DNA from: Liolophura sinensis
Lineage: Eukaryota > Mollusca > Polyplacophora > Chitonida > Chitonidae
Assembly (NCBI RefSeq): GCF_032854445.1
Contig: NC_088296.1
Coordinates: 436,001-500,000, forward strand
Direction of reading: 5' to 3'
DNA: 64,000 nucleotides
The notes beneath the pieces are model-generated. The model worked only from the letters and a program-made list of their open reading frames with translations, had not been told where the DNA came from and ran no database searches. The position numbers were made by a program, and so were the translations under genes. Below, piece by piece: positions 15,298-52,560 of this stretch. How positions within the stretch are numbered: position 1 is the stretch's first letter; the number at the start of each line of letters is the position of its first letter.

Positions 15298-15407
15298 TCA
15301 ATAACCAAGTTCCAGCAGATTGTATTTACACATACAAATCTCACAACCTTGTTTGTCTCGTACAAGCCCGAGTGGACACGCGAGAAGACATGATAACGGA
15401 GGGCAAT
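15298..15407 (-). CDS. Gene A exon 3 (antistasin-type domain and stop)
   Basis: 110 bp exon after a ttttacag acceptor. It starts with two bases finishing an Asp codon, reads 35 codons and ends in TGA. Six cysteines follow the antistasin pattern. The residue after the second cysteine, the P1 site in hirustasin, is Leu. It ends LLELGY, where B and C end with similar tails. It is too short to stand out as an open frame. Confidence 0.87.
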
Positions 15408-18400
15408 CTGTAAAATGTAGAAAACATGTGCCTTACTAAAATACGTAAAATAAAATTAGAGGTACATCATCGGCCACAAGTAGGTAGGTACAGGAATGTA
15501 GGCACAGGAAGCTGGGCACATGAATCTAGGCACATGAATGTAGGCACAGAAATGTAAGTACAGGAAGGTAGGCACAGGAAGCTGGGCACTGGAAGATAGA
15601 CACAGGAATGTAAGCACAGGAAGGTAGGCACAGGGATGTAGGCACAGGGATGTAGACAAAGGGTGGTAGACAGGAATGTAGGCACTGGAAAGTAGGTACA
15701 GGAATGAAGGCACAGGAATGTGGGCACAGGAAGGTAGGCACAGGAAGGTACGCACATGAAGGAAGACACAGGAAGGAAGGCATAGGATGGTAGACTCAGG
15801 AATGTAGGCACAGTAAGGTAGGCACAGGAATGTAGGCACTGGAAAGTAGGTTCAGAAATGAAGGCACAGGAATGTGGGCACAGGAAGGTAGGCACAGGAA
15901 GGTACGCACATGAAGGTAGACACAGGAATGTAGGCACAGGATGGTAGACACAGAAATGTAGGCAGAGTAAGGTAGGCACAGGTATGTAGGCAAAGGAATA
16001 TAGGCACAGAGAGGTAGGCACGGGAAAGTAGGCACAGGAAGGTAGACACAGGAATGTAGGCACAGGATGGAGACAGGAATGTAGGCACAGGAAGGTAGGC
16101 ACATGAATCTATGCACATGAATGTAGGTACAGGAATGAAGGCACAGGAAGGTAGGCACAGGAATGTAGGCACAGGATGGTAGACACAGGGATGTAGGCAC
16201 AGTGAGGTAGGCACAGGAATGTAGATATAGAAATGTAGACACAGGAAGGTAGGCACAAGAAGGTAGGTACAGGAATGTAGACACTGGAATGTAGGCGCAA
16301 GAATGTAGGCAGAGGAAGGTAGGCACAGAAATATAGACACAGCAACGTAGGCACAGGAAAGTATACACCCGAATCTAAGCAAAGAATTTATTTATTTATT
16401 TGATTGGTGTTTTACGCCGTACTCAAGAATATTTCACTTATACGACGGCGGCCAGCATTATGGTGGGTGGAAACCGGGCACAGCCGGGGGGGAACCCACG
16501 ACCATCCGCAGGTTGCTGGCAGACCTTCCTACATACGGCCGGAAAGGAAGCCAGCATGAGCTGGAGTTGACTAAGCAAAGGAAGGTAGGCACAGGAATGT
16601 AGGTACAGGGAGGTAGGCACAGGAATGTAGGCACAGGAAGGTAGGTACATGAAGGCGGGCACAGGAAGGTAAACACAGAAATGTAGGCACTGGAATGTAG
16701 GCACAGGAAAGTAGGCACAGAAATGTAGACACAGTAAGGTAGGCAGAGCAATGTTGGCACAGGATGGTAGGCACAGCAATGTAGGCACAGGAAGGTAGGC
16801 ACTGGAATGTAGGCACAGGAAGGTCGGCACAGCAATGTAGACACAGGAAGGTAGGCACAGGAAGGTAGACACAGGAATGTAGGCACAGGAATGTAGATCT
16901 AAATCTAAACGACTCCATATTCCTGATATATTCTCAAAATATTTTCATTAAAGACAAATGTTATATTAATCAAAACTGCTTTTCCAATGTATTTAAAATT
17001 CCGTTTCGATTTCTCTACTTGCTCTAGAACCTTGGCAATTGGAGCCTTAGGCGACACAAATAGGCTTGTTTAGACCCGCCTCACTACTGATGTCCTCGTG
17101 CGGATAAGATTTAATCAACAGTCAACTAAATTATTTCAGGCGTTGACTCCTGCCGAGTGACATCAGTGTTGTTGAAAGTATTAAAGTATTAAAGTATTAA
17201 TCATTAATATTACCGTCTAGGACTGACAAAGCCTCAAGCACGCGTCTTGATATTTAACTGAGTCTGTACATGCCCACCTTGTTGGGTTGTATCACCCAAA
17301 ATTGGAACACACTCCGATCTGCAGCCGTTTTTCTGGCATTCCCATCCTTTTGCGCACGTCCTGTCCTTCAAGTCACATTCCACCCGGCACTCTCCTCTAG
17401 ACCGCGGTAACGACCAGGCACCTTCGTGATTGGTGCAAAAAAGATTTGTTTGTATATTTGGCAATCGCTTTAAGCGATTTTATTACAACGGGTGTCGTGC
17501 TGTAAAATCATGACATTTCTCTCAAATTTATGTATTTATTTATTTAACCGACTGGTGTTTTACGCCATACTCAAGAATATTTGACTTATACGACGGCGGC
17601 CAGCGTTATAGTGGGAGGAAACCGGGCAAAGCAGGGGGAAAATCCACGACCATCCGCAGGTTGTTGGAGACCTTCCCACGTATGGCCGGAGAGGAAGCCA
17701 GCATGAGCTGGACTTCAACTCACAGCGACCGCGTTGGTGAGAGGCGCCTGGGACATCGCGCCGCGCTGGCGCGTTAAACATCGCGGCCACGGAGGCCCCT
17801 TATTCCTCTAAAAAAAATAATATATTAGAACTTTTCCTACAAACACACGACAATTTGAAGAATGTTCGTATATTTCTTCAAACGGGTTTTCGCCACGTTA
17901 TGTCTATGTCTATAATGGTTAAATCGTAGACCTACCATTAACTGTCTTCGGCTTTAAGGCTATTCATCCTGCATATCGAACGCATTGTCTCGGATGTGAT
18001 GTGAACATACTGCTACACTGTCAGGTACTAGAAACCTTTCTACATGTAATTGAAATGCCAACAATAAATCGAGTGGCTGCAGTAGAACTCTAGGCCAAAA
18101 ACCAACAGCAGAACAGTAAACGAAGGGGCAAAAATTCACCACATTACAACAGTAGACAGAATGACTAAGATATACCAATTGGCAACAATAGAACAGCAGA
18201 CGAAGTGAAACGAGATACCAAGTGGCAACAATAGAACAGCAGACTAAGTGAAGCGAGATGCTAAGTGGCAACAATAGAACAGAAGACGAAGTAAAACGAG
18301 ATAACAAGTGGCCACACTAGAACAGAAGACGAAGTGAAAAGGAGATACCAAGCGGTAACAATAGAACAGAAGACGAAGTGAAACGAGATACTAAGTGGCA

Positions 18401-19189
18401 ACAATAGAACAAAAGACAAAGACGGTATCAATAGAATAGAAGACAAAGTGAAAACAAGATACCAAGCGGTAACAATAGAACAGAAGACGAAGTGAAAACG
18501 AGATACCAAGTGGCAACAATAGAACAGTAGACGATGTAAAAACGAGATACCAAGTGACCACAATAGAACAGTAGACGAAGTGAAAACGAGATACCAAGTG
18601 GTTACAATAGAGCAGAAGACGAAGTAAAAACGAGATACTAAGTGGCAACAATAGAACAGTAGACGAAGTGAAAACGAGATACCAAGTGGCCTCAATAGAA
18701 CAGTAGGCGATGTAAATCGAGATACCAAGCGGTTACAATAGAGCAGTTGACGAAGTGAAAACAAGATACCAAGTGGCAACAACAGAACAGAAGATGAAGT
18801 GAAAAGGAGATACCAAGTGGCAACAACAGAACAGAAGACGATGTGTAAACGCGATACCAAGTGACCACAATAGAACAGTAGGCGAAGTGAAAACGAGATA
18901 CCAAGCGGTTACAATAGAGCAGAAGACGAAGTAAAAACGAGATACTAAGTGGCAACAATAGAACAGTAGACGAAGTGAAAACGAGATACCAAGTGGCCAC
19001 AATAGAACAGAAGACGAAGTGAAAACGAGATACCATGCGGTAACAATAGAACAGAAGACGAAAACGAGATACTAAGCGGTAACAATAGAACAAAAGACGA
19101 AGTGAAAACGAGATACCAAGCGGTAACAATAGAAGAGCCGACTTACCTAGCGTTGCCAGGCAGAGTAGAACATAAATTTTGAACACCAT
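15298..19189 (-). CDS. Gene A: secreted WAP-like plus antistasin-type protein, probable protease inhibitor
   Basis: Three exons on the - strand (19147-19189, 17278-17421, 15298-15407) join in frame with phase 1 introns to give a predicted 98-residue protein. Residues 1-14 are a hydrophobic signal peptide (MVFKIYVLLCLATL). Residues ~16-60 form a WAP-like module with cysteine spacing C-x3-C-x6-C-x5-C-x4-C-x3-C. Residues ~64-90 form an antistasin-type module, C-x4-C-x3-C-x10-C-x2-C-x-C, with the typical PLG...D..GC core. Both families inhibit extracellular serine proteases, so a secreted inhibitor is inferred; no target is known. Two paralogues (B, C) follow in tandem on the same strand. Both introns of gene A contain large minisatellites, and the second also contains two SINEs. 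Confidence 0.85.
15470..16905. repeat. ~14-15 bp minisatellite in gene A intron 2
   Basis: About 90 short units of the type ggcacaggaatgta or ggcacaggaaggta, with variants such as gacacagg, ggtacagg and a few 'ctgggcac' units. On the reverse strand all three frames stay open, giving spurious 81-211 residue proteins rich in PTFLC/SCAYIPV repeats. These are products of the array, not genes. A SINE splits it at 16385-16570. Confidence 0.95.
16385..16570 (-). mobile_element. 5'-truncated SINE family 1 inserted in the minisatellite
   Basis: Runs in reverse from tail aatttatttatttatttgat through gttttacgccgtactcaag, ggccagcattatggtggg and the accttcctacatacggccgg block to ccagcatgagctgg. It is flanked by perfect 10 bp duplications ctaagcaaag at 16375-16384 and 16571-16580. 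The tRNA head is absent, as in 5'-truncated target-primed insertions. Confidence 0.95.
16906..17265 (-). other. Gene A intron 2, unique part
   Basis: No repeat array except a short triple of 'aaagtatt' near 17180. No exon is seen. Confidence 0.5.
17278..17421 (-). CDS. Gene A exon 2 (WAP-like domain)
   Basis: 144 bp exon between the acceptor ...atcacgaag and the donor gtgggc, symmetric phase 1-1. It encodes AWSLPRSRGEC, then six cysteines in all. Aligned to WAP domains, the positions of classical cysteines 1 and 6 are empty (Gln stands at position 6), while the KNGC...C end is WAP-typical. The acceptor is less pyrimidine-rich than those of genes B and C. Confidence 0.85.
17530..17799 (-). 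mobile_element. SINE family 1, full-length inverted copy in gene A intron 1
   Basis: Tail tgtatttatttatttaaccg, gttttacgccatactcaag, ggccagcgttatagtgggag, ccagcatgagctggacttc, cagcgaccgcgttggtgaga, head ending ggccacggaggcccc. It lies 109 bp upstream of exon 2 of gene A, close to the branch-point region. The 76-residue reverse frame here is SINE sequence. Confidence 0.93.
17800..18100 (-). other. Gene A intron 1, unique part
   Basis: AT-rich intron sequence without visible features between the SINE and the minisatellite. Confidence 0.5.
18105..19135. repeat. ~43-44 bp minisatellite in gene A intron 1
   Basis: More than 20 units of aacaatagaacagaagacga, then agtgaaaacgagataccaag, tggc, with many point variants and occasional short units. 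It reaches within about 12 bp of the 5' splice site of exon 1. The reverse-strand frames of 86-199 residues (VSRFHFVFCSIV type) are array artefacts. Confidence 0.95.
19147..19189 (-). CDS. Gene A exon 1 (signal peptide)
   Basis: 43 bp from ATG (19189) to the donor GTAAGT: 14 codons and one base. The start is the first ATG before a run of hydrophobic residues. The open frame would extend upstream to 19246, but the predicted signal peptide supports this ATG, and the paralogues have the same exon length within one codon. Confidence 0.8.
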
Positions 19190-19249
19190 GTTTGGTTTGT
19201 GGTCCAGTCTTTGATCTAAGCTAACAGAACCAGATAACCATGCCATCTG

Positions 19250-20280
19250 TGCGTTTCCGACACCTGGCAGCTAACAGAATCGCTGTATGTGTCTTCAGCA
19301 CGGCATTAACAAATGCATGAATCTACTCTCTTTTGGTTGGTATCGGCCTTAAACACACAGGAGTCGAAATTTACTAGCTTAGATGACGGTATAGTGTGAT
19401 TTGGTCGTGTCATACCGAACTCTTTTTTAAAAATCGCACCTCGCTTGGCGCTCATCGGCAAGAGGTAAGAGGAAGAAAACGGGACTGATTTGCCCGGTGT
19501 CAGTAAAATGTCACTGGGTAGAGTGTCATATCTGGTGTCTTCAGCATAATTCTTGGACTCGCCCAGCCACCAGTAGACACAGTATAACCGCTAAATATGT
19601 GCACACAATACAGGTTTACATATTTAATGATATACCGTTTGGAATCATCGTGGTTCAAATCCGGCCTTGGACAAGAAATTTGTACATTCCCTCGCTCTCA
19701 CTGTTTGTAGGTGAACAGTATTATTTCAGTAATCTTTCCCTCATGGATACATATGGAGACATAAGGCCCACCTTAGAATTCTAATGTTTGAACGCCTTGA
19801 ACTCTTTTCACACAAATCTAAAAAATGTAAATGAAAATTTCAAATATATTTTGCATAGTTTTTAGTGATCTATATAGTGATGCCTGCTTTCATATTTAGA
19901 GGTCTTTTCCTTTAACCCGGTTAAGTTTGTTAAAGACCTCTTGCCTTCCACTAATATGGTGAGATAATCTCCACCGAATATTGTTTAAGTTTTCCCGGCC
20001 TATAAACTTACCTCCATTGTATGAGTGAAAATGTCTTGAGTGCAACACTAAAACAAGAAACGAATCATTTGGCTGTCATGAGGACATTACACCATGATGA
20101 CAAAAACAGCCATGCCTCGTTTTATACACAGGTTCAGGTTTTTGTCAATGAAGTCCATTTCCGCATCGGATCTTGGTTAAATTGACTTCAACTGGCAGAA
20201 CTCCCCTCTGAGACTGACTTAATTTTTTGTCATCATTTGGCTTTAATTTGCACGGAACTTAGTTAATTGTTAATGTAAAA
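19250..20280. other. Spacer between genes A and B
   Basis: Contains the upstream region of gene A. No confident exon. A short SINE-like trace (attgtatgagtgaaaatgtc, then ttgag) lies near 20015-20040. The open frame at 19497-19784 has no recognisable motif. Confidence 0.4.
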
Positions 20281-20329
20281 AAGGGACTACAGCATGGCGA
20301 GCAAAACCAGAACAGCGGCGTCATTGTCC

Positions 20330-20400
20330 TATTTGGTAAAGGGTCACACGAAACCGGTGAACACGGCTTCCTGTCAATTTACCTTAGGGCTTTGAACCGG
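20330..20400 (+). mobile_element. Fragment of dispersed repeat family 4
   Basis: gtcacacgaaaccggtgaac, then acggcttcctgtcaatttacc and ttagggcttt, matching blocks at 35090-35220 and 8340-8380. Confidence 0.5.
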
Positions 20401-20479
20401 GAATTTATAGACCAATCCGGCTTGCGGGTTCTTGGTAAGAATAACTGTAGCCATCAGTACAGTCTTAGAGTCGGTGAAG

Positions 20480-20662
20480 GCCACTTATATTTCACCAGTA
20501 TACATGTGGCCATATCACACGCGCACGGGAAAGTTTGTTAGAAAGTTGCCAAAGATCGGTGGTTTTCACCAGCGAAAAAACCTACTTACCTATTGAGCTA
20601 TCTTGGTTCTCACTGCTAGTAATACATAACAAATGAATAAATGCTAGTTAAATAAATCCCCG
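20480..20662 (+). mobile_element. Dispersed repeat family 3 fragment
   Basis: Contains gggaaagtttgttagaaagt, then ttgccaaagatcggtggttttcacc and a 'gaataaatgctagttaaataaat' tail. Similar blocks occur at 27645-27780 and, inverted, at 25690-25805. A SINE-like family is inferred from the tail. Confidence 0.5.
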
Positions 20663-20771
20663 CTGACATCGCCAAAGTATAATCATAATTTCTTTTGTTC
20701 GTTGACACTATTGGAAGAAAACTCCTGTGAGTTTTAAGAAAGAAAACCAATTCATGCATACTCTACATGTA

Positions 20772-20777
20772 TTTATT
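20772..20777 (-). terminator. Candidate poly(A) signal of gene B
   Basis: AATAAA on the reverse strand about 42 bp beyond the gene B stop codon. Confidence 0.4.
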
Positions 20778-20818
20778 CTGGACATGCTGATTGGACCTAT
20801 TCTTGTCACATGATCTGA

Positions 20819-20928
20819 CTAGTGTCCCAGCTCTAACAGGTGGTAGTCACACTCGCACGTGTCACAGCCGTGATGGTCACGCACAAACCCAAGAGGGCAA
20901 CGCAGGTCGCACGTCACGGTTGGGCAGC
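20819..20928 (-). CDS. Gene B exon 3 (antistasin-type domain and stop)
   Basis: 110 bp after the acceptor cttccaaacag, ending in TAG. Two leading bases complete a Gly codon, and 35 codons follow. Core: C-x4-C-DLR-C-PLGFVRDHHGC-x2-C-x-C. The residue at the hirustasin P1 position is Asp, unlike the basic or hydrophobic residues of known antistasin inhibitors. Confidence 0.87.
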
Positions 20929-23084
20929 CTGTTTGGAAGCAGATATACACATAAGCAGTTATATACCTTAAATGACAGTGCAAAAGCCATAGTCTCAAAT
21001 GTAAGAAGCTTTAAATGCAATTTCCCTAAATTAAGAATCTGCAAGGCTCAAAAGAAATCATGGCCCCGCACATAAACTAGAGCGACATTATACAAGGCGA
21101 ATGTGGGAAGGTCTGCTAGCAAACTGTGGATGATCATGGACCCGCCCATGAACTAGAGCCACATCATACAAGGCGAATGTGGGAAGGTCTGCAGCAAACT
21201 GTGGATCATCATGGCTCCGCCCATAAACTAGAGCCACATTATACAAGGCGAATGTGGGAAGGTCTGCAGCAAACTGTGGGTGATCATGGACCCGCCCATG
21301 AACTAGAGCCACATTATAAAAGGCGAATGTGAGAAGGTCTGTCAGCAAACTGTGGATGATCATGGCTCTGCTCATAAACTAGAGCCACATCATACAAGGC
21401 GAATGTGGGAAGGTCTGTCAGCAAACTGTGGGTGATCATGGACCCGCCCATGAACTAGAGCCACATTTTACAAGGCGAATGTGGGAAGGTCTGTCAGCAA
21501 ACTGTCGATGATCATGGCTCTGCTCATAAACTAGAGCCACATCATACAAGGCGAATGTGGGAAGGTCTGTCAGCAAACTGTGGGTGATCATGGACCCGCC
21601 CATGAACTAGAGCCACATTTTACAAGGCGAATGTGGGAAGGTCTGCCAGCAAACTGTGGATGATCATGGCTCTGCCCATAAAATAGAGCCACATTATACA
21701 AGGCGAATGTGGGAAGGTCTGCCAGCAAACTGTGGATGATCATGGACCCGCGCATAAACGAGAGCAACACTATACAAGGCGAATGTGGGAAGGTCTGCCA
21801 GCAAACTGTGGATGATCATGGCTCCACCTATAAACTAGAGCGACATTATACAAGGCGAACGTGGGAATGTCTGCCAGCAAACTGTGGATGACCTTGGCTT
21901 TGCCCGTTTACCTCCCATCATAATGCTGACCCTGTCGTATAAGTGAAATATTCTTGAGTACGACACCAACCAAGTAAATAAATAAATACAAGCGAAATAT
22001 ATTATCAACTTACATTATAGAACTAAAAGGCGAATAATTCAGTAAATAACTGAATGATACTCAACTTAATTTCCATGCATTCAGGTGAACCGTTACCTTT
22101 TTGTGTCAGTTTGTAGTCACTCTTTTGGAAACATTCCGAGCCACAGCCATTACTCTTACATTCGTATCCATCCATGCACGTGACACCATTCCCACCACAT
22201 AGCAACAGGCAACTTCCTCTAGGCCGAGGTGCCGACCAGACTGCAATGTGATTGGCGGAGAAACGACACATCCGTCACTGGCAGATTCATGTAGAAACTT
22301 TTATATTAAAACATTTTGCTGCAACATGAACTAAAGTCACGTTCATTCCGAGGGAAAGGTTGCACTCGTCCGTCAAATATGTATTGTAGAATAAAAACAG
22401 AAGTCTATTTCATACGATTTGAACATTTCAACTAAAACTGATTAACAGTTGACACCTTTCGATTCCGTCCAAACTGACAAATGGTACAACAAATCGCAGG
22501 GTGTGAACGCGACTTGGTGCAAATCTGATTTCCATTTATGTCCTGTTCATAAAAAGTTAACTAATAAGTTTTCGGACGTACGGAAAAAATGGACCGGCGT
22601 GGAGATAAACATGCGAACTGACAGAACAACGGATGGACGAACAGACAAATGGACCCTATAGAATAACGGACGCTTGTATGGACAAGCAGAGGGATGTACA
22701 AAAAAAACAGGCTAACGAACAGACCTGCGGATAAGGGACAGGGAAACGGAAAAACGTACAAAGAGGTTAACAAACGGATAAGGGACAAACAAACGCATAC
22801 ATTTACAGACAAACATGCAAACGTACAGACTAACGGATGAGGGGAAGACAAACAGGCTAACGTAACATAACAACGGATAAGGGGCAGACAAACAGGCTAA
22901 CGTACAGACCAACGGATAAAGGCAGATAAACGTACAGACAAACTTAAAGACAAACGTACAGAAAATGGACAGGCATGTGGACAGATGAATAAAAGCGCAG
23001 ATTAGCGGATTGGCATACAAAGACATACACAGCAGCTGACTCACCGCAGGCACACACGCCAAGCAATAAACACAGCTTCAACAT
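20819..23084 (-). CDS. Gene B: secreted WAP-like plus antistasin-type protein, probable protease inhibitor
   Basis: Exons 23045-23084, 22097-22240 and 20819-20928 join in frame, both introns in phase 1, to give a predicted 97-residue protein. It has a 13-residue signal peptide (MLKLCLLLGVCAC), a WAP-like module preceded by WSAPRPRG, and a C-terminal antistasin-type module. The cysteine spacing is identical to genes A and C in both domains. Exon 2 is very close to gene C exon 2, so B and C are the younger pair. Intron 1 holds a 'cgtacagacaaac' minisatellite. Intron 2 holds an 11-copy 76 bp array derived from a SINE. Function as an extracellular protease inhibitor is inferred from both domain families. 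Confidence 0.86.
21070..21897 (+). repeat. 76 bp tandem array derived from the SINE body, gene B intron 2
   Basis: Eleven units 76 bp apart (gcgaatgtgggaaggtctgc at 21097, 21173 and so on). About 40 bp of each unit (atgtgggaaggtctgccagc, aaactgtggatgatcatgg) matches the SINE family 1 core acgtgggaaggtctgtcagc...tggtcgtgg. The rest (acccgcccataaactagagc...) is unlike the SINE. The array runs straight into the 3' half of a SINE. Confidence 0.93.
21880..21990 (+). mobile_element. 3' part of SINE family 1, parent of the 76 bp array
   Basis: tttgcccgtttacctcccatc, ataatgctgaccctgtcgta, taagtgaaatattcttgagt, then aaataaataaata. It continues the last array unit in SINE order. Confidence 0.88.
22097..22240 (-). 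CDS. Gene B exon 2 (WAP-like domain)
   Basis: 144 bp exon between the acceptor aatcacattgcag and the donor gtaacg, phase 1-1. It reads WSAPRPRGSC, LLLC, then GGNGVTCMDGYEC and KSNGCGSEC. The SNGCG..C end is typical of WAP domains, but classical cysteines 1 and 6 are missing (Lys replaces Cys6). The residue after the first Cys of the domain is Leu, as at the SLPI domain 2 reactive site. Confidence 0.87.
22600..22990. repeat. Imperfect 'aaacgtacagacaaacgg' minisatellite, gene B intron 1
   Basis: Irregular 16-33 bp units built from cgtacagacaaac, ggataaggg and acaaacag. Closely related arrays lie at 26505-26600 (gene C intron 1) and 27010-27180 (next to the decayed copy), so the array pre-dates the gene duplications. 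Reverse-strand 96-116 residue frames with CLFVC repeats are artefacts. Confidence 0.88.
23045..23084 (-). CDS. Gene B exon 1 (signal peptide)
   Basis: 40 bp, ATG at 23084, donor GTGAGT. It encodes 13 residues plus the first base of a Val codon finished by exon 2. The sequence differs from gene C exon 1 by only a few bases. Confidence 0.85.
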
Positions 23085-23100
23085 CACAGAAGGAACTTTA

Positions 23101-23190
23101 AATTGGGACACACCTTGTTAGACTGAGAGCGCAGGACGCCAGCTCTTTAAGTTAGATAAGGAGGTTAAGTTACTTACACATAATGATAGA
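23101..23190 (-). promoter_or_regulatory. Conserved upstream region of gene B
   Basis: Upstream of the gene B ATG, shared blocks acacaccttgt and cttatctaa (read on the reverse strand as acaaggtgtgt and ttagataag) occur in the same order and spacing as upstream of gene C (26742-26822). They are either a proximal promoter or simply recent duplication. No clear TATA box is recognised. Confidence 0.45.
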
Positions 23191-23199
23191 TAAGAACTG

Positions 23200-23925
23200 T
23201 GAATACGGGAGACCGAACCGGTTAAAACGATACTGAAGTAGAAACACCATTACATGCTTTATATAATGCAGTATCAATAGAATGTAAAGGAAGTCACGAA
23301 CAACCCTGTCCTCGTGCTTTCTTCATTTGTGCAGCGACGTACAAAGTAGTAGTATGTTACTAATGTGACGTTTATTTTACGTGATTTTCATTGGCAAAAA
23401 TTTTCTATCGATAGCCTGGTGTGAAATGTTTCTTAGTCCGACACTAATGCGCCAATCCCCCCCCCTCAACCAAAAAAAAAAAAAACAAACAAACAAACGT
23501 GAGATCCGCCATCTGCCTGAAGATACTGTCGGGGTCAGAGGTCACGTCTGAATCCCAGGAAATATTCAGAATGTACGTTCTGGAAATCCATTCCCCAAAA
23601 TATGGCAGCCCAGAAGCACTTTACCGAAAGCTAAGTAGCTTTGGCTGAAAGTAAACGTTACAACGACAACCACATACACTCACTTCAGCTTCAATGGCTC
23701 GTCGTTGTCATGCTCTACGTAGTAAGGCGACAATACCTGGCAATCAATCAATCAGTCAGAATTTACGTAATTCATTTTTTTTAGTTAAACGTTTTCATTA
23801 CCAGACTGCATCCACGTGGGTGCCAAGAAACGCGAGATAGTTCGAAATTGTACGAGACTGGTTACAAGGTTACTTTGTACTTGGAGATACACGTGTAGTA
23901 ACAACGCCATCATGATAACACACCC
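23200..23925. other. Spacer between genes B and C, no gene seen
   Basis: Includes an A-rich/C-rich tract at 23455-23492. No exon or SINE is recognised. Confidence 0.4.
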
Positions 23926-23927
23926 TT

Positions 23928-24326
23928 TTAAAGCAAATGTGTACAAAACTCAGACAGGATGTGTAGGTACATATTTCCTTTAAAACTTTGCATATGGACA
24001 CTGTAAATTGCATTCACACCTCTGTACTGTAAGCAGTGTAGTTTCTCTTTCAGTGTGTACCAAATTGTATACTCCTTGTTTAAATCACCGCACAAAGCGG
24101 TACACATCTTTACATTAGATAAATTAAAGCCACATGTTTGTAGCTTCCCTTTTTCCGGTTTTCCCACTATAGCTTGCATTTGTATCAGAGCTGCTAAGAA
24201 CTGATCAAAGAATTGTCTTTTTAGCCAGGCCCTATAGGGGGACTTTCGAGTTTGAACTCTTCTATCGATAAAGGTAAAAAAAAAAAAACCTACTGTGTCA
24301 TGTGACTTCTCAAAAATGTTAGGCAA
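23928..24326 (-). other. Unidentified 132-codon open frame ending in an inverted-repeat arm
   Basis: A reverse-strand frame whose first ~35 codons lie in the left arm of a large inverted repeat. The right arm encodes a related stretch on the + strand (TFIDRRVQTRKS versus TFNDKRVRTRNF). Composition is protein-like, but no family is recognised. It is probably a fragment of a mobile-element gene; the start is arbitrary because a poly-A run lies in the frame. Confidence 0.3.
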
Positions 24327-24628
24327 CTATAGCGGGATCACATTTACTATAACACTGGAGTCTGAAAAATATTTCCCAAACAGTTATTTATAAAAGAAAA
24401 AAGATGGCGAAAATTGAGGAGCTGAACGTTTGTGAACTTGAGAAGTTTCTGATAGAAAAATTTGTCTGTCATGTGTGCCTTTAGATCACCGTGAGATAAG
24501 CGATCGGTAATTTAATGTCTGCATAGGTTGCCTAACATTTTCCTCAAGTCATGTGATACATGAGGACTGTTTTTACCTTCAACGACAAAAGAGTTCGAAC
24601 TCGAAACTTCTCTATTCCTGCCTGGTGC
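24222..24628. repeat. Large inverted repeat, ~100 bp arms, ~200 bp spacer
   Basis: The left arm 24222-24327 (ctttcgagtttgaactcttc, ggtaaaaaa, atgtgacttc, atgttaggcaac) matches the reverse complement of 24526-24628 (gttgcctaacat, aagtcatgtga, ggactgtttttacc, aagagttcgaactcg) at roughly 80 percent by eye. The spacer has a short open frame beginning MAKIEELNVCELEKFLIEKF. A foldback element or a head-to-head duplication of an element end is inferred. Confidence 0.75.
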
Positions 24629-24634
24629 TCAAAT

Positions 24635-24636
<2 letters not shown>

Positions 24637-24678
<42 letters not shown>

Positions 24679-24893
24679 TTTTATTGGTGTCTTAAGCCAT
24701 CCTCAAGAATATTTCACTTACGGCGGCCAACATTATGGTGGGAGGAAACCAGACGGAACCCAGTGAAAACCAACATGATGCTGAAGGACGTTAGCTCGTT
24801 TGAACGTAGAGGAAGTCAGTATGAGTTGGTGTTGAGAACACAGGTACCACATTGGTGGGAGCCTACCGCACAATTCATTGTGCCGAGCTAACA
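24637..24893 (-). mobile_element. SINE family 1, inverted, degenerate
   Basis: A long ATTT tail (tatttatttattt run), ttggtgtcttaagccatcct, caagaatatttcacttacgg, attatggtgggaggaaacc, then a diverged body ending near cattgtgccgagctaac. Confidence 0.88.
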
Positions 24894-25490
24894 GGCCAAC
24901 AGGGGCCATGTGGTGCTTTGTTCACTCTGTCGCTGAGATTTGTTGACAAACAGACCAGTTACGTAGTCATCACATATTACCAAGGAAATGTGGCCATTCC
25001 AGCTTGGATTAGCCATTGCATGGGAAAAGACACCCCAATGGTACCCGGTTAATTTTCATCCGTAAACAATTTTGTCGGCTGGTATAATTCCGTTAATTTA
25101 TTTTATTTTGACTTGGTTTAACTTCAACCTGTTTGATATTCCATTCGGAAGTTTCATACGGCACATGGCTACACCCCTCATTTGGACTCCATGCGGTCTT
25201 ATTGCTTCATGTTTTATTTCTACACTGGAACTTAGTGTATGCATATGGCACGTAGACAGGACACAAAGAAACAGCATGATATCTTAGAAGGACACGACGA
25301 TCGATCCTAGCCTTGTCACGTGGGCAGAATTTCTGTGGAATAATAATATACCCTTGTTATAAATAGTACAAGGACATGTGTAGCCTATCTCAAGAAGAAA
25401 AAACGCAGTGTTTTTCTAGACACAAAAATACTCGGCTGCTGTATTCATTTTAAGCTCGCTGATTGGCCCCAATCCTGTCACGTGATCTGA

Positions 25491-25600
25491 CTAGCGTCCC
25501 AGCTCTATCATGTGGTTGTCACAGTGGCACGTGCGGCAGCCATGATGGTCTCGCACAACCCCAAAGGGACATAGGTGGTCACACATCAGGGGCGGGCAAT
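25491..25600 (-). CDS. Gene C exon 3 (antistasin-type domain and stop)
   Basis: 110 bp after the acceptor ttcccccccctgacag, ending in TAG. The core is C-PPLM-C-DHL-C-PFGVVRDHHGC-x2-C-x-C. The residue at the hirustasin P1 position is Asp, as in gene B. About 30 bp of 3' flank (agatcacgtgacagga) is also shared with gene B. Confidence 0.88.
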
Positions 25601-26716
25601 CTGTCAGGGGGGGGAAAGACATAGACATAGGCATGTAAAAGCTCACACGGTTCGTCAAGTTTATTTGTTTATTTGTTTGTTTATTTGACCCTGTTCAACG
25701 CTGTTTTAACCAATATGATGGCGGTCTTTTCTACAGGTGGAGGGAACCTGAGAACCCGGTGTAAACCACCGGCCTTTGAGAAGTTACTTATAAACTTTCC
25801 AACATGTGACGAAGACGTGACGTTATACAAGGCATATTGGTGAAATACACGTCGCCTTCAACGAGCTTTAAGCTACAAAAAAACAGCCACAAGAGCATCG
25901 TCGACCACTTATTCTCACCAAGGCCCTATTTGGAGTCAGAGCTAGGGAAAACTACAAATTCCCTGACCATGGCCATGTTTGAAGCAAAATGGTTCAAAAA
26001 AGTACACGTATTCATTAAGTGCTTGTTTGTCTGAATTAATATTGTCTGATTTGTAAAGCGTCCAGACTTGTACCTTTGTGAGTCAGTTTGTCGTCCTTCA
26101 GCATACATTGTAAACCACAGCCATTGCTCCTACAATCGTATCCTTCCGGGCACCTCACACCATTCCATCCGCATTGTAACGGGCAACTTCCTCTAGGCCG
26201 AGGTGCCGACCAAACTGCAATGCGATTGGTGGAAAAATATCAAAGGTATGGTTTCCATATAGAAAAGTAGAATTGGTAAACGTACGTTATAAACGTTTAA
26301 TTACAACTTTTTGTGGCTGGAGAGGAAAAGGAATTCTCTTTATCTAATGTAATGGACCGATTATACCTCATGCTGACATACATGTCAGTGCGTTATTATA
26401 GGGCATGGAAACTCTGGGTTGATTTAAGGCTTTGAAATTTCGAAAAACGCTCTAGTGCCGTCATTTGGGAAGGGGACGTGCAGAGGAGTATATATAGACT
26501 AGTGGAATGTACACACAAACGTACAGACAAACGTACAGACAAAGGTACAGAGATTCGGACATTCGATTAATCAAAAGGGAGAACGTATAGACGAACTGAT
26601 GGACCAGAAGTCAATTGGACACACGTACAAATAAACGGATGAACGTAAAGACAAATAGACATTGCAAATGACTCACCGAAGGCACACAGACCCAACAACA
26701 AACACAGCTTCAGCAT
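25491..26716 (-). CDS. Gene C: secreted WAP-like plus antistasin-type protein, probable protease inhibitor
   Basis: The most compact of the three paralogues. Exons 26677-26716, 26074-26214 and 25491-25600 join in frame with phase 1 introns, giving a predicted 96-residue protein. It has a 13-residue signal peptide (MLKLCLLLGLCAF), WSAPRPRG, a six-cysteine WAP-like module and a six-cysteine antistasin-type module ending MIELGR-stop. All splice borders are GT/AG. Compared with gene B it has one codon fewer in the linker after the WAP-like module. It is the first of the cluster in the direction of transcription. The secreted inhibitor role is inferred; the partner protease is unknown. Confidence 0.87.
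25662..25805 (-). mobile_element. Dispersed repeat family 3, inverted, gene C intron 2
   Basis: A TTTG/TTTA-rich tail (tttatttgtttatttgttt) then gatggcggtct and aaccaccggcctttgagaag, then ttacttataaactttcc, the reverse complement of blocks at 27680-27770 and 20520-20570. Confidence 0.6.
26074..26214 (-). CDS. Gene C exon 2 (WAP-like domain)
   Basis: 141 bp exon, acceptor aatcgcattgcag, donor gtacaa, phase 1-1. It encodes WSAPRPRGSC, PLQC, GWNGVRCPEGYDC, RSNGCGLQC and a linker with KLTHK. Cysteine spacing matches A and B. Arg replaces classical Cys6, and Pro follows the first domain Cys. Confidence 0.88.
26505..26610. repeat. 'cgtacagacaaac' minisatellite, gene C intron 1
   Basis: A few copies of aaacgtacagacaaa and related units, homologous to the gene B intron 1 array. 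Confidence 0.8.
26677..26716 (-). CDS. Gene C exon 1 (signal peptide)
   Basis: 40 bp from ATG at 26716 to the donor GTGAGT. The open frame extends upstream to 26755, but the internal ATG (MLKLC...) is chosen because it begins the hydrophobic signal and aligns with gene B. Confidence 0.86.
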
Positions 26717-26999: not shown

Positions 27000-27290
27000 G
27001 GACCAACGGTTAGCAATACGGAAAAGTGTACATACAAACAGACATGCGTACAGACAAACAGACAAGCGCGGGGACAAACAGACAAGCGTACAGACAAACA
27101 GACAAGCGCACAGACAAACAAACAAGCGTGCAGACAAACGGGCAAGCGTATAGACAATCAGACGAACGGATGGACCAACAATCAGTTGGATCTACGTACC
27201 AATAAACGAATAAACATACAGAGAAATACACATTGCAACTGACTCACCGAAGACTTTCCTCCGACTTAACCAACCAACCAAAATGCTGAT
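27000..27290 (-). pseudogene. Probable decayed fourth exon 1 / intron 1 segment of the inhibitor cluster
   Basis: The reverse strand reads tcttcggtgagtcagttgca, then atgtgtatttctctgtatg. This aligns with the gene C exon 1 end, donor and start of intron 1 (ccttcggtgagtcatttgca, atgtctatttgtctttacg), followed by the same kind of minisatellite. The signal-peptide codons upstream are not recognisable and no ATG is in frame. No exon 2 or 3 partner is seen, so this is a partial duplication or remnant. Confidence 0.6.
27010..27180. repeat. 'gcgtacagacaaacagacaa' minisatellite beside the decayed copy
   Basis: About eight 16-20 bp units related to the arrays in intron 1 of genes B and C. The 73-residue reverse frame here is an artefact. 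Confidence 0.88.
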
Positions 27291-42830: not shown

Positions 42831-43020
42831 AAACTTAATTAAGCATTAATCAAACAAAAGTGAATGAAGTGAGTCTTTCTTTTTCCAGTACAACACATTC
42901 TTTGAGAATCTGAATGTTGGTTTTATTTGCTGACTGCATCTTTTCATGCTTACTTCCGAAGTTGCGTTTTATTGTCATTTTTGGCTTAAAGTTTAAAATA
43001 AATATGGTTGACATTTTCAG

Positions 43021-43690
43021 GTACGAGTCTAACAGCTTCTCCATGGCAGAACACGGCGGAACACACCTTGATGCGCCTGCGCACTTCTGGAAAGGCGGCT
43101 GGCGTGTGCACGACATCCCGCTGACACGTTTCATTGGTCCAGGGGTCGTTATCGATATCTCAGCGCGTGCCCAGCAGAACCCGGATGCACAGGTGGAAGT
43201 GGCAGATCTTCTAAAGTGGGAAGAGGATCACGGGAAAATCCCTGAGCGAGCAATGGTTCTTATGAACTCGGGCTGGAGCCAGCGCTGGCCGAACAAAACA
43301 CTGGTGTTCGGATCTCGAACGCCCGACGATTCTTCGACCTTCCACTTTCCCGGCTTCAGCCCGAAGGCCTCTCAATGGCTGGTTGACAATAGGAAACATA
43401 TCAACGCCATCGGCGTAGACACGCCCTCTGTAGATTATGGCCAATCACGCGATTTCGAGACTCATGTGATCACTGCAGGCGCCAGCCTCGTTTGTCTGGA
43501 AAACATAGCTCACTTAGACAAGATACCAGTCAAGGGAGCCACAATAAACGCGATCCCCATGAAAATCCGCGACGGAAGTGGAGCTCCAGTGAGAATGTTC
43601 GCCATTATGAATAACGTCAACGCGGCGCAGGACGTCCACTTCGCAAAAATATCATTCCTGGTTATATTAGTCGCCATTACCTTCACATAG
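43021..43690 (+). CDS. Kynurenine formamidase/isatin hydrolase-type cyclase, terminal coding exon
   Basis: This is a metal-dependent hydrolase of the cyclase family (PF04199), which opens amide bonds in compounds such as N-formylkynurenine or isatin. The exon starts after the acceptor gacattttcag, with one base completing a codon, and runs 222 codons to TAG. At residues ~11-22 it has EHGGTHLDAPAHF, the HxGTHxDxPxH metal-site signature. Later blocks GVDTPSVDYG, CLENIAHLDKIP and IRDGSGAPVRMFAI match the family C-terminal half. About 40-60 N-terminal residues must come from upstream exons that were not found. The last ~13 residues (ISFLVILVAITFT) are strongly hydrophobic, after an NNVNAAQD stretch, which suggests a GPI-anchor signal or a C-terminal membrane segment. 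The ORF extends 5' to 42914, but that part is intron. The true substrate is unknown. Confidence 0.92.
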
Positions 43691-49790: not shown

Positions 49791-52560
49791 GCTTTACCGC
49801 TAACAACAATTGGCACATGTATATCATCGCTTTTACTTTACCGCTAACAACAACTGGCACATGTATATCATCGCTTTTACTTTACCGCTAACAGCAATTG
49901 GCACATGTATATCATCGCTTTTACTTTACCGCTAACAACAATTGGCACATGTATATCATCGCTTTTACTTTACCGCTAACAACAATTGGCACATGTATAT
50001 CATCGCTTTTACTTTACCGCTAACAACAATTGTCACATGTATATCATCGCTTTTACATTACCGCTAACAACAATTGGCACATGTATATCATCGCTTTTAC
50101 TTTACCGCTAACAACAATTGGCACATGTATATCATCGCTTTTACTTTACCGCTAACAACAATTGGCACATGTATATCATCGCTTTTACTTTGCCGCTAAC
50201 AACAATTGGCACATGTATATCATCGCTTTTACTTTACCGCTAACAACAATTGGCACATGTATATCATCGCTTTTACTTTACCGCTAACAGCAATTGGCAC
50301 ATGTATATCATCGCTTTTATTTTACCGCTAACAACAATTGGCACATGTATATCATCGCTTTTACTTTACCGCTAACAACAATTGGCACATGTATATCATC
50401 GCTTTTATTTTACCGCTAACAACAATTGGCACATGTTTATCATCGCTTTTATTTTACCGCTAACAACAATTGGCACATGTATATCATCGCTTTTACTTTA
50501 CCGCTAACAACAATTGGCACATGTATATCATCGCTTTTACTTTACCGCTAACAACAATTGGCACATGTATATCATCGCTTTTACTTTACCGCTAACAACA
50601 ATTGTCACATGTATATCATCGCTTTTACATTACCGCTAACAACAATTGGCACATGTATATCATCGCTTTTACTTTACCGCTAACAACAATTGGCACATGT
50701 ATATCATCGCTTTTACTTTACCGCTAACAACAATTGGCACATGTATATCATCGCTTTTACTTTGCCGCTAACAACAATTGGCACATGTATATCATCGCTT
50801 TTACTTTACCGCTAACAACAATTGGCACATGTATATCATCGCTTTTACTTTACCGCTAACAGCAATTGGCACATGTATATCATCGCTTTTATTTTACCGC
50901 TAACAACAATTGGCACATGTATATCATCGCTTTTACTTTACCGCTAACAACAATTGGCACATGTATATCATCGATTTTATTTTACCGCTAACAACAATTG
51001 GCACATGTTTATCATCGCTTTTATTTTACGGCTAACAACAATTGGCACATGTATATCATCGCTTTTACTTTACCGCTAACAACAATTGGCACATATATAT
51101 CATCGCTTTTATTTTACCGCTAACAACAATTGGCACATGTATATCATCGCTTTTACTTTACCGCTAACAACAATTGGCACATATATATCATCGCTTTTAC
51201 TTTACCGCTAACAACATTTGGCACATGTATATCATCGCTTTTATTTTACCGCTAACAACAATTGGCACATGTATATCATCGCTTTTACTTTACCGCTAAC
51301 AACAATTGACACATGTATATCATCGCTTTTACTTTACCGCTAACAACAATTGGCACATGTATATCATCGCTTTTACTTTACCGCTAACAGCAATTGGCAC
51401 ATGTATATCATCGCTTTTACTTTACCGCTAACAACAATTGGCACATGTATATCATCGCTTTTATTTTACCGCTAACAACAATTGGCACATGTATATCATC
51501 GCTTTTACTTTACCGCTAACAACAATTGGCACATGTATATCATCGCTTTTACTTTACCGCTAACAACAATTGTCACATGTATATCATCGCTTTTTACATT
51601 ACCGCTAACAACAATTGGCACATGTATATCATCGCTTTTACTTTACCGCTAACAACAATTGGCACATGTATATCATCGCTTTTACTTTACCGCTAACAAC
51701 AATTGGCACATGTATATCATCGCTTTTACTTTGCCGCTAACAACAATTGGCACATGTATATCATCGCTTTTACTTTACCGCTAACAACAATTGGCACATG
51801 TATATCATCGCTTTTACTTTACCGCTAACAGCAATTGGCACATGTATATCATCGCTTTTATTTTACCGCTAACAACAATTGGCACATGTATATCATCGCT
51901 TTTACTTTACCGCTAACAACAATTGGCACATGTATATCATCGCTTTTATTTTACCGCTAACAACAATTGGCACATGTTTATCATCGCTTTTATTTTACCG
52001 CTAACAACAATTGGCACATGTATATCATCGCTTTTACTTTACCGCTAACAACAATTGGCACATGTATATCATCGCTTTTACTTTACCGCTAACAACAATT
52101 GGCACATGTATATCATCGCTTTTACTTTACCGCTAACAGCAATTGGCACATGTATATCATCGCTTTTACTTTACCGCTAACAACAATTGGCACATGTATA
52201 TCATCGCTTTTATTTTACCGCTAACAACAATTGGCACATGTATATCATCGCTTTTACTTTACCGCTAACAACAATTGGCACATGTATATCATCGCTTTTA
52301 CTTTACCGCTAACAACAATTGGCACATGTATATCATCGCTTTTACTTTACCGCTAACAACAATTGGCACATGTATATCATCGCCTTTACTTTACCGCTAA
52401 CAACAATTGGCACATGTATATCATCGCTTTTACTTTACCGCTAACAACAATTGGCACATGTATATCATCGCTTTTACATTACCGCTAACAACAATTGACA
52501 CATGTATATCATCGCTTTTACTTTACCGCTAAAAACAGTTAGCATATCATCGCTTTTATC
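49790..52560. repeat. Homogeneous 44 bp satellite, about 62 units
   Basis: Unit: ttggcacatgtatatcatcg, cttttactttaccgctaaca, acaa. Rare marker variants recur in the same order: tgtcacatgt at 50031, 50603 and 51571, spaced 572 (13 x 44) and 968 (22 x 44) bp, each followed by a cattacc unit, then a tttgccgc unit, agcaatt and ttatttt units, and 'atgtttatc'. Blocks of units were therefore duplicated together. The right end decays at 52520-52580. Confidence 0.97.

What the first reader, a model, noticed from the sequence alone, without database searches (positions are those of the whole stretch)
15298..26716. Tandem cluster of three undescribed secreted WAP-like plus antistasin-type genes
Seen directly: three - strand genes with the same three-exon plan, a 40-43 bp signal-peptide exon, a 141-144 bp six-cysteine exon and a 110 bp six-cysteine exon. 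All introns are phase 1 and every splice border is GT/AG. The joined frames are open in all three, which would be very unlikely by chance. Known: WAP and antistasin domains are extracellular serine-protease inhibitor families. Inference: a lineage-expanded family of compact two-domain inhibitors of 96-98 residues. They are easily missed because no exon gives a long open frame and the introns are full of minisatellite frames.
Basis: partly seen in the sequence, partly recalled or inferred. Interest (0 to 1): 0.88.

Follow-up and report, generated by a model that had tools for sequence, protein, structure and literature searches.

The report
Three chiton secreted protease-inhibitor-like genes
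Three neighbouring genes in a chiton (a marine mollusc) encode tiny secreted proteins that join a reduced WAP-type module to an antistasin module, probably to block proteases in mucus or body fluid; the combination is known from limpets, but the reduced WAP half is unusual.

Summary
Copies B and C resemble each other mainly in the exons and short flanks, with dN/dS 0.33. The genome matches the published chiton assembly GCA_032854445.1 (Liolophura sinensis). Exon 3 is an antistasin domain over Pfam's cut-off. Exon 2 fails Pfam's WAP cut-off (14.7, 12.5, no hit; cut-off 20.8), but profile comparison makes it WAP-derived: its six cysteines align with WAP C2, C3, C4, C5, C7, C8. C1 and C6, disulfide partners in elafin (recalled), are missing. 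Two genes of the same plan lie on another chromosome, and a third locus pairs a canonical WAP exon with an antistasin exon. WAP plus antistasin proteins are already reported from limpet adhesive mucus and shell matrix, so the architecture is not new. Likeliest function: a secreted antistasin-type inhibitor on a three-disulfide WAP-derived scaffold. The putative P1 residue is acidic in 5 of 6 family antistasin exons, which leaves the target open. No expression data were examined.

The parts
19147..19189 (-). Gene A exon 1 (putative signal peptide)
   Evidence: 43 nt, ATG, GT donor, phase 1
17278..17421 (-). Gene A exon 2, six-Cys WAP-derived module
   Evidence: Pfam WAP 14.7 bits for the exon peptide, below cut-off 20.8; HMM alignment to C2,C3,C4,C5,C7,C8
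15298..15407 (-). Gene A exon 3, antistasin domain and stop
   Evidence: PF02822 34.9 bits; residue after 2nd Cys = Leu
23045..23084 (-). Gene B exon 1 (putative signal peptide)
   Evidence: 40 nt
22097..22240 (-). Gene B exon 2, six-Cys WAP-derived module
   Evidence: no Pfam WAP row
20819..20928 (-). Gene B exon 3, antistasin domain and stop
   Evidence: PF02822 40.5 bits; residue after 2nd Cys = Asp
26677..26716 (-). Gene C exon 1 (putative signal peptide)
   Evidence: 40 nt
26074..26214 (-). Gene C exon 2, six-Cys WAP-derived module
   Evidence: Pfam WAP 12.5 bits for the exon peptide, below cut-off
25491..25600 (-). Gene C exon 3, antistasin domain and stop
   Evidence: PF02822 32.9 bits; residue after 2nd Cys = Asp
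25440..25490 (-). 3' flank of gene C similar to that of gene B (20768-20818), probable 3' UTR
   Evidence: the exon 3 match continues about 50 nt past the stop
27078..27252 (-). Second copy of the gene C exon 1 end and start of intron 1: probable remnant of a further partial duplicate
   Evidence: 72.6% over 179 columns to 26511-26681, E 6e-25; no exon-2 or exon-3 pattern beside it; no signal sequence recognised by eye

Best explanation
Three tandem paralogues encode small secreted proteins of two cysteine-rich modules. SHOWN: gene structure, coding constraint between copies, antistasin domain in exon 3, related genes of the same plan on C10, a canonical WAP-antistasin exon pair on C1. SUPPORTED BY PROFILE COMPARISON: exon 2 descends from a WAP domain that lost C1 and C6. 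INFERRED: C1 and C6 are disulfide partners in canonical WAP, so the loss removes one whole disulfide and leaves C2-C7, C3-C5 and C4-C8. With 3 residues between C2 and C3, as in most WAP domains read from this genome, the module probably presents no elafin-type inhibitory loop and serves as a compact scaffold or binding module. The antistasin module offers a substrate-like loop to a serine protease with the residue after its second cysteine as P1 (Leu in A, Asp in B and C; Glu, Glu, Asp on C10). The proteins would be secreted into mucus or body fluid to curb the animal's own or microbial proteases. Different P1 residues in tandem copies suggest divergence of targets.
For: Gene models; chance control; B/C dN/dS 0.33 and similarity mainly on exons. 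Antistasin. WAP origin: an HMM of 26 canonical WAP domains of the same genome aligns all 5 exon-2 peptides with the same Cys register; 29 antistasin domains score at most 3.7 bits on it against 6.1-11.0 for the 5 exon-2 peptides; hhalign probability 90.5, score 27.2, against mean 12.2 and maximum 24.6 for 100 column-shuffled alignments with cysteines fixed. Same plan on C10; canonical WAP plus antistasin exons on C1. A review says WFDC domains with C2-C3 spacing of 3, 4 or 7 may lack room for an inhibition site (PMC11408880, passages). The limpet authors propose that P-vulgata_12 protects pedal mucus as a stable protease inhibitor (PMC7333891, passages).
Against: Exon 2 misses the Pfam WAP cut-off, and single-sequence scores are weak: 24, 73, 26, 7 and 60 of 400 Cys-fixed shuffles reach the scores of A, B, C, D1 and D2. 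One of the 100 column shuffles reached probability 84. For D1's exon 2 the best Pfam row was Lustrin_cystein (14.1 bits, cut-off 27), ahead of WAP (12.6). Exon 2 also shows some resemblance to the antistasin C-half (probability 26, 1 of 60 shuffles reaches its score). AlphaFold2 on exon 2 is poor (mean pLDDT 60.2) and the best Foldseek match has E 1.9, a factor Xa light chain. Acidic P1 is not reported for the leech inhibitors in the passages seen of PMC6265900. No expression or activity data.
Confidence: 0.6

Rival explanations
1. Exon 2 is not WAP-derived: it is a divergent antistasin module (an N-half or a duplicated C-half) or a lustrin-type cysteine repeat, so the protein is not a WAP-antistasin chimera.
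For: Exon 2 shares C-P-x-G-[YWF] and N-G-C with antistasin C-halves; hhalign probability 26, score 16.8, 1 of 60 shuffles reaches it. The antistasin N-half of 1skz has a similar C-PEGSA-C step. D1 exon 2 gave Lustrin_cystein 14.1 bits.
Against: The WAP match is stronger (probability 90.5, score 27.2). The fourth family cysteine (WAP C5) and the C-x3-C ending fit WAP and not antistasin's C-x2-C-x-C. Against two antistasin N-halves the score is 11.4 and 16 of 60 shuffles reach it, while 30 random pairs of WAP domains score 20.5 on average (10.7 to 43.5). None of 28 antistasin matches had an N-half pattern in frame directly upstream (separate exons not excluded). Lustrin_cystein stayed far below its cut-off, and the genome search for it gave 2 matches, both below cut-off and elsewhere; no profile comparison with lustrin repeats was possible.
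Confidence: 0.18
2. The proteins are structural or antimicrobial cysteine-rich secretions (mucus, adhesive, cuticle or shell matrix) in which neither module inhibits proteases.
For: Acidic putative P1 in 5 of 6 family antistasin exons; short WAP loop; WAP plus antistasin proteins are found in limpet adhesive and shell matrix.
Against: The full antistasin model is matched, positions 1-26, in A, B, C, D1 and D2; copy A has Leu at P1, usable for elastase- or chymotrypsin-type targets (inference).
Confidence: 0.3
3. One or more copies are pseudogenes or unexpressed duplicates.
For: No transcripts examined; several introns are full of minisatellites; a partial relic sits beside gene C.
Against: Frames, splice borders and the 12 domain cysteines are intact in all three; dN/dS 0.33 for B/C.
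Confidence: 0.06

Closest known systems
P-vulgata_12, secreted protein of limpet pedal adhesive mucus (PMC7333891, passages)
   Same: Small secreted mollusc protein with WAP and antistasin-like domains, 15.1% cysteine.
Lotgi1|201804 and Lotgi1|239125, Lottia shell-matrix proteins (PMC3374290, passages)
   Same: WAP and antistasin-like domains in one shell-matrix protein of a mollusc.
   Different: Large: about 85 and 103 kDa, with 8 and 11 WAP domains.
Antistasin-type inhibitors of leeches (hirustasin, antistasin, guamerin)
   Same: C-half frame of six cysteines with one substrate-like loop.
   Different: Canonical domain has ten cysteines including an N-half; here a six-Cys WAP-derived module stands in that place; P1 is Asp or Leu rather than Arg, Lys or Met.
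WAP / WFDC proteins (elafin, SLPI; disulfide pattern recalled)
   Same: Cys register C2,C3,C4,C5,C7,C8 and the C-x3-C ending; C2-C3 spacing of 3 as in 25 of the 26 domains of this genome used (that set was picked with spacing 2-4).
   Different: No C1, no C6, below the Pfam cut-off; elafin's C2-C3 spacing is 8.
C1:32.06 Mb gene of the same genome (L016)
   Same: Signal exon, WAP exon and antistasin exon, phase 1.
   Different: WAP has eight cysteines and passes the cut-off (26.0 bits); a donor site follows the antistasin exon, so the gene seems to continue.

Membership tests
Antistasin (PF02822) | Score above the curated cut-off of 21.2 bits over the 26-position model | tested here: met
   A 34.9, B 40.5, C 32.9 bits, positions 1-26 in all three
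Antistasin (PF02822) | Six-cysteine C-half frame C-x4-C-x3-C-x2-G-x6-GC-x2-C-x-C | tested here: met
   3 matches in the window, one per gene (places)
Antistasin-type inhibitor, leech type | Ten cysteines paired 1-3, 2-4, 5-8, 6-9, 7-10, with an N-half (PMC6265900, passages) | tested here: not met
   only the C-half frame is recognised; exon 2 does not match two N-halves better than shuffles (16 of 60 reach it)
Antistasin-type inhibitor, leech type | P1 Arg/Lys or Met, as reported for the leech inhibitors | tested here: not met
   residue after the second Cys is Leu (A), Asp (B), Asp (C); that this residue is P1 is recalled
Antistasin-type inhibitor, leech type | Inhibits serine proteases | not testable with these tools
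   needs recombinant protein
WAP four-disulfide core (PF00095) | Score above the curated cut-off of 20.8 bits | tested here: not met
   exon peptides: 14.7 (A), 12.5 (C), none (B); 12.6 (D1), none (D2); no WAP row for the whole proteins
WAP four-disulfide core (PF00095) | Eight cysteines including the adjacent C5-C6 pair | tested here: not met
   C1 unmatched and C6 replaced by K, R or Q in all 5 family copies
WAP four-disulfide core (PF00095) | Homology to WAP at profile level | tested here: met
   hhalign probability 90.5, score 27.2; best of 100 shuffles 24.6
WAP four-disulfide core (PF00095), inhibitory type | C1-C2 and C2-C3 spacing of 6 and 8 residues (PMC11408880, passages) | tested here: not met
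   C2-C3 is 3 residues in all 5, C1 absent
WAP four-disulfide core (PF00095) | WAP fold | tested here: inconclusive
   pLDDT 60.2; SLPI 4doq has the highest TMq (0.42) and elafin 2rel 0.36; all 40 matches have E 1.9 or more, most of them coagulation-factor light chains
Lustrin_cystein (PF14625) | Score above the curated cut-off of 27 bits | tested here: not met
   D1 exon 2 14.1 bits; no row for A, B or C

The most novel reading that the evidence does not exclude
Exon 2 is a distinct three-disulfide module derived from WAP by paired loss of C1 and C6, kept in this chiton as a phase-1 cassette and joined more than once to different antistasin exons, giving a family of acidic-P1 inhibitors aimed at Glu/Asp-specific serine proteases. 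C10 exon 3 groups with antistasin exons of C2:19.32 Mb (SH-aLRT 81; 89 with one C11 exon) rather than with the window's exon 3, although one clade for all six is not rejected (p-AU 0.10).
Probability: 0.12. Interest if true: 0.55.

Novelty: new variant of a known kind. Interest (0 to 1): 0.3.

Why it matters
It shows that a chiton carries compact WAP-antistasin genes comparable in domain content to limpet adhesive and shell-matrix proteins, and gives a case of a WAP domain losing the two cysteines that (as recalled from elafin) pair with each other. If the acidic P1 position is functional it would point to a target class not reported for the leech antistasin-type inhibitors cited here. The short phase-1 exons are easily missed by gene finders; whether the published annotation has these genes was not checked.

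Tried and rejected
Chance origin: rejected. A first version of that control (60 windows) used a wrong antistasin spacing and found no exon 3 even in the window; corrected.

Exon 2 as antistasin N-half: not supported, but that profile had only two sequences. Exon 2 as duplicated antistasin C-half: weaker than WAP, not excluded. Exon 2 as lustrin cysteine repeat: below cut-off; the genome search for PF14625 gave 2 matches, both below cut-off, too few for a profile comparison.

Other exon-2 relatives: four weak genome hits over the exon-2 part (C12:14.36 Mb, C1:77.54 Mb, C13:27.39 Mb; C13:8.39 Mb) were read and did not show the six-cysteine pattern; by eye they look like other cysteine repeats (one EGF-like, one laminin-EGF-like). 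Hits C6:80.89 Mb and C9:1.53 Mb, which touch the exon 2/3 border, were not read.

Structure: AlphaFold2 on the five exon-2 peptides, mean pLDDT 60.2; Foldseek uninformative.

NCBIfam gave no hit for B or D1. phmmer against the PDB with B gave antistasin (E 0.027), hirustasin (1.3) and a beta-1,3-glucanase (1.3), the first two aligned from late exon 2 through exon 3.

Tree of 26 antistasin exons over 26 columns: no starred branch; a hint only. Its rows are the window and C10 exons plus a part of the 60 PF02822 matches; near-copies and rows of other length were left out, and one row (C1:1.309 Mb) was entered one residue short to fit the columns.

WAP census: the HMM comes from 26 domains (17 of 22 loci read) chosen by a pattern that requires the CC pair and a C2-C3 spacing of 2-4, so neither can be counted there. 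A pattern that does not require CC gave 15 rows from 12 of 23 loci; all 15 keep CC, and two show no C1 in the printed frame (L036; third row of L076). Only part of the 80 PF00095 matches was read.

Literature on a chiton antistasin or a six-cysteine WAP variant: searches listed none by title or abstract start; all but one search were capped lists.
Full report
ORIGIN. The window is C2:436001-500000 of an assembly of 609,464,459 bases in 632 contigs. The published chiton assembly GCA_032854445.1 has 632 scaffolds, 609,495,693 bases (31,234 more than here, unexplained), a longest scaffold of 96,433,062 and a scaffold of 25,057,479 (PMC11068029, passages); C1 and C4 here have exactly those two lengths. 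A correction renames the species Liolophura sinensis (PMC12441733, whole text).

OBSERVATION. All nine exons, their borders and frames are as reported. The cysteine patterns of exon 2 and exon 3 occur three times each in the window and in none of 200 simulated windows. In blastn, C and B share exon 1 with about 30 nt of intron, exon 2, and exon 3 with about 50 nt of 3' flank; other rows are repeats and one 41-nt match upstream of exon 1. B and A share exon 2 and three repeat rows; C and A gave no row. dN/dS is 0.33 for B/C (0.12 for the signal part, 0.38 for the six-Cys part, 0.40 for the antistasin part). For A/B and A/C it is 0.26 and 0.23, and for D1/D2 0.11, with dS of 1.7 or more, near saturation; A/D1 and B/D2 gave 0.21 and 0.34 with dS above 2.5, and the other four pairs gave no usable dS. 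These look like coding genes under constraint. No transcripts were examined.

EXON 3. All three products pass the Pfam antistasin cut-off over the full model.

EXON 2. As exon peptides A and C reach Pfam WAP below cut-off and B not at all; the whole proteins gave no WAP row. D1's exon 2 gave Lustrin_cystein (14.1 bits, cut-off 27) ahead of WAP (12.6), D2's nothing. An HMM from 26 canonical WAP domains of the same genome places the six cysteines of all five family members on C2, C3, C4, C5, C7 and C8; the C6 position is K, R or Q, and C1 is missing. Single-sequence scores are not convincing alone (24, 73, 26, 7 and 60 of 400 shuffles reach them for A, B, C, D1, D2), though 29 antistasin domains score no higher than 3.7 on the same HMM. 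Profile against profile: probability 90.5, score 27.2; 100 column shuffles have mean 12.2, maximum 24.6, highest probability 84. That C1 pairs with C6, C2 with C7, C3 with C5 and C4 with C8 is recalled from elafin. On that pairing the loss is that of one whole disulfide. A review says that C2-C3 spacings other than that of elafin and the second SLPI domain may leave no room for an inhibition site (PMC11408880, passages). Here the spacing is 3; but so it is in 25 of the 26 canonical domains (a set picked with 2-4), so the short loop is ordinary for this genome, and only the missing C1 and C6 set exon 2 apart.

RELATIVES. Searches with the B, D1, A and C proteins gave six-cysteine exon-2 relatives only in the window cluster and at C10:14.459-14.465 Mb; four further weak hits over that part were read and lack the pattern. 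On C10, genes D1 (exons 46/129/116 nt, 96 aa) and D2 (46/129/95, 89 aa) have the same plan, phase and borders, and a further antistasin exon stands alone. At C1:32.06 Mb a signal exon, a canonical WAP exon (26.0 bits) and an antistasin exon (32.9 bits) follow one another in phase 1. So the pairing exists in ordinary form in the same genome. PF02822 gave 60 matches (58 over cut-off) and PF00095 80 (79 over cut-off), both lower bounds.

P1. The residue after the second antistasin cysteine is Arg in 1skz (first domain) and 1bx7 (alignments); P1 Arg/Lys or Met is reported for leech inhibitors (PMC6265900, passages). That this residue is P1 is recalled. It is L (A), D (B), D (C), E (D1), E (D2), D (lone C10 exon). 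In the other 26 distinct domains extracted it is acidic in 5 of 26, three of them near-identical neighbours. Copies are related by duplication, so these counts are not independent, and only part of the genome's antistasin exons was read.

KNOWN PRECEDENT. P-vulgata_12 in limpet pedal mucus is a secreted 219-residue protein with WAP and antistasin-like domains and 15.1% cysteine; its authors suggest it protects the mucus (PMC7333891, passages). Two Lottia shell-matrix proteins combine many WAP domains with antistasin-like ones (PMC3374290, passages). In a mussel, antistasins are noted in the digestive gland and WAP-like proteins in foot and mantle rim (PMC5549309, passages). The architecture is therefore known in molluscs; the WAP module without C1 and C6 and the compact form are what is left as new.

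VERDICT. Genes of a known kind with a variant WAP module. Confidence: real genes 0.95; antistasin domain 0.98; exon 2 from WAP 0.8; serine-protease inhibitor by the antistasin loop about 0.55-0.6. The most novel reading, a three-disulfide cassette joined repeatedly to antistasin exons, is not excluded but thinly supported.

Noticed in passing
window 15484-16896, 18172-19134, 21057-21898: Different minisatellites fill introns of these genes: 14-bp units in gene A intron 2, 43-44-bp units in gene A intron 1, 76-bp units in gene B intron 2.
   Followed up: no
window 27078-27252: Extra copy of the end of exon 1 and start of intron 1 upstream of gene C, probably a remnant of a partial duplication.
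   Followed up: partly
L013:8846-8955: A lone antistasin exon downstream of gene D2 on C10; no exon-2 pattern other than those of D1 and D2 in L013-L015: relic or alternative last exon.
   Followed up: partly
window 42914-43690: Plus-strand frame of 258 aa matching Putative cyclase PF04199 (141.6 bits), unrelated to the finding.
   Followed up: partly
G000:C6:35.495-35.605 Mb: Cluster of WAP matches, among them 8 partial ones (positions 14-41) with equal or nearly equal scores, most 3.7-4.7 kb apart, and antistasin matches at 35.592 and 35.604 Mb. Two of the 8 were fetched (L059, L060) and gave no row with the WAP pattern.
   Followed up: partly
G000:C2:16.25-16.28 and 19.32-19.48 Mb: Two further clusters of antistasin exons.
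   Followed up: partly
window 49792-52544: Very long 44-bp minisatellite, 62.5 copies at 97% match.
   Followed up: no
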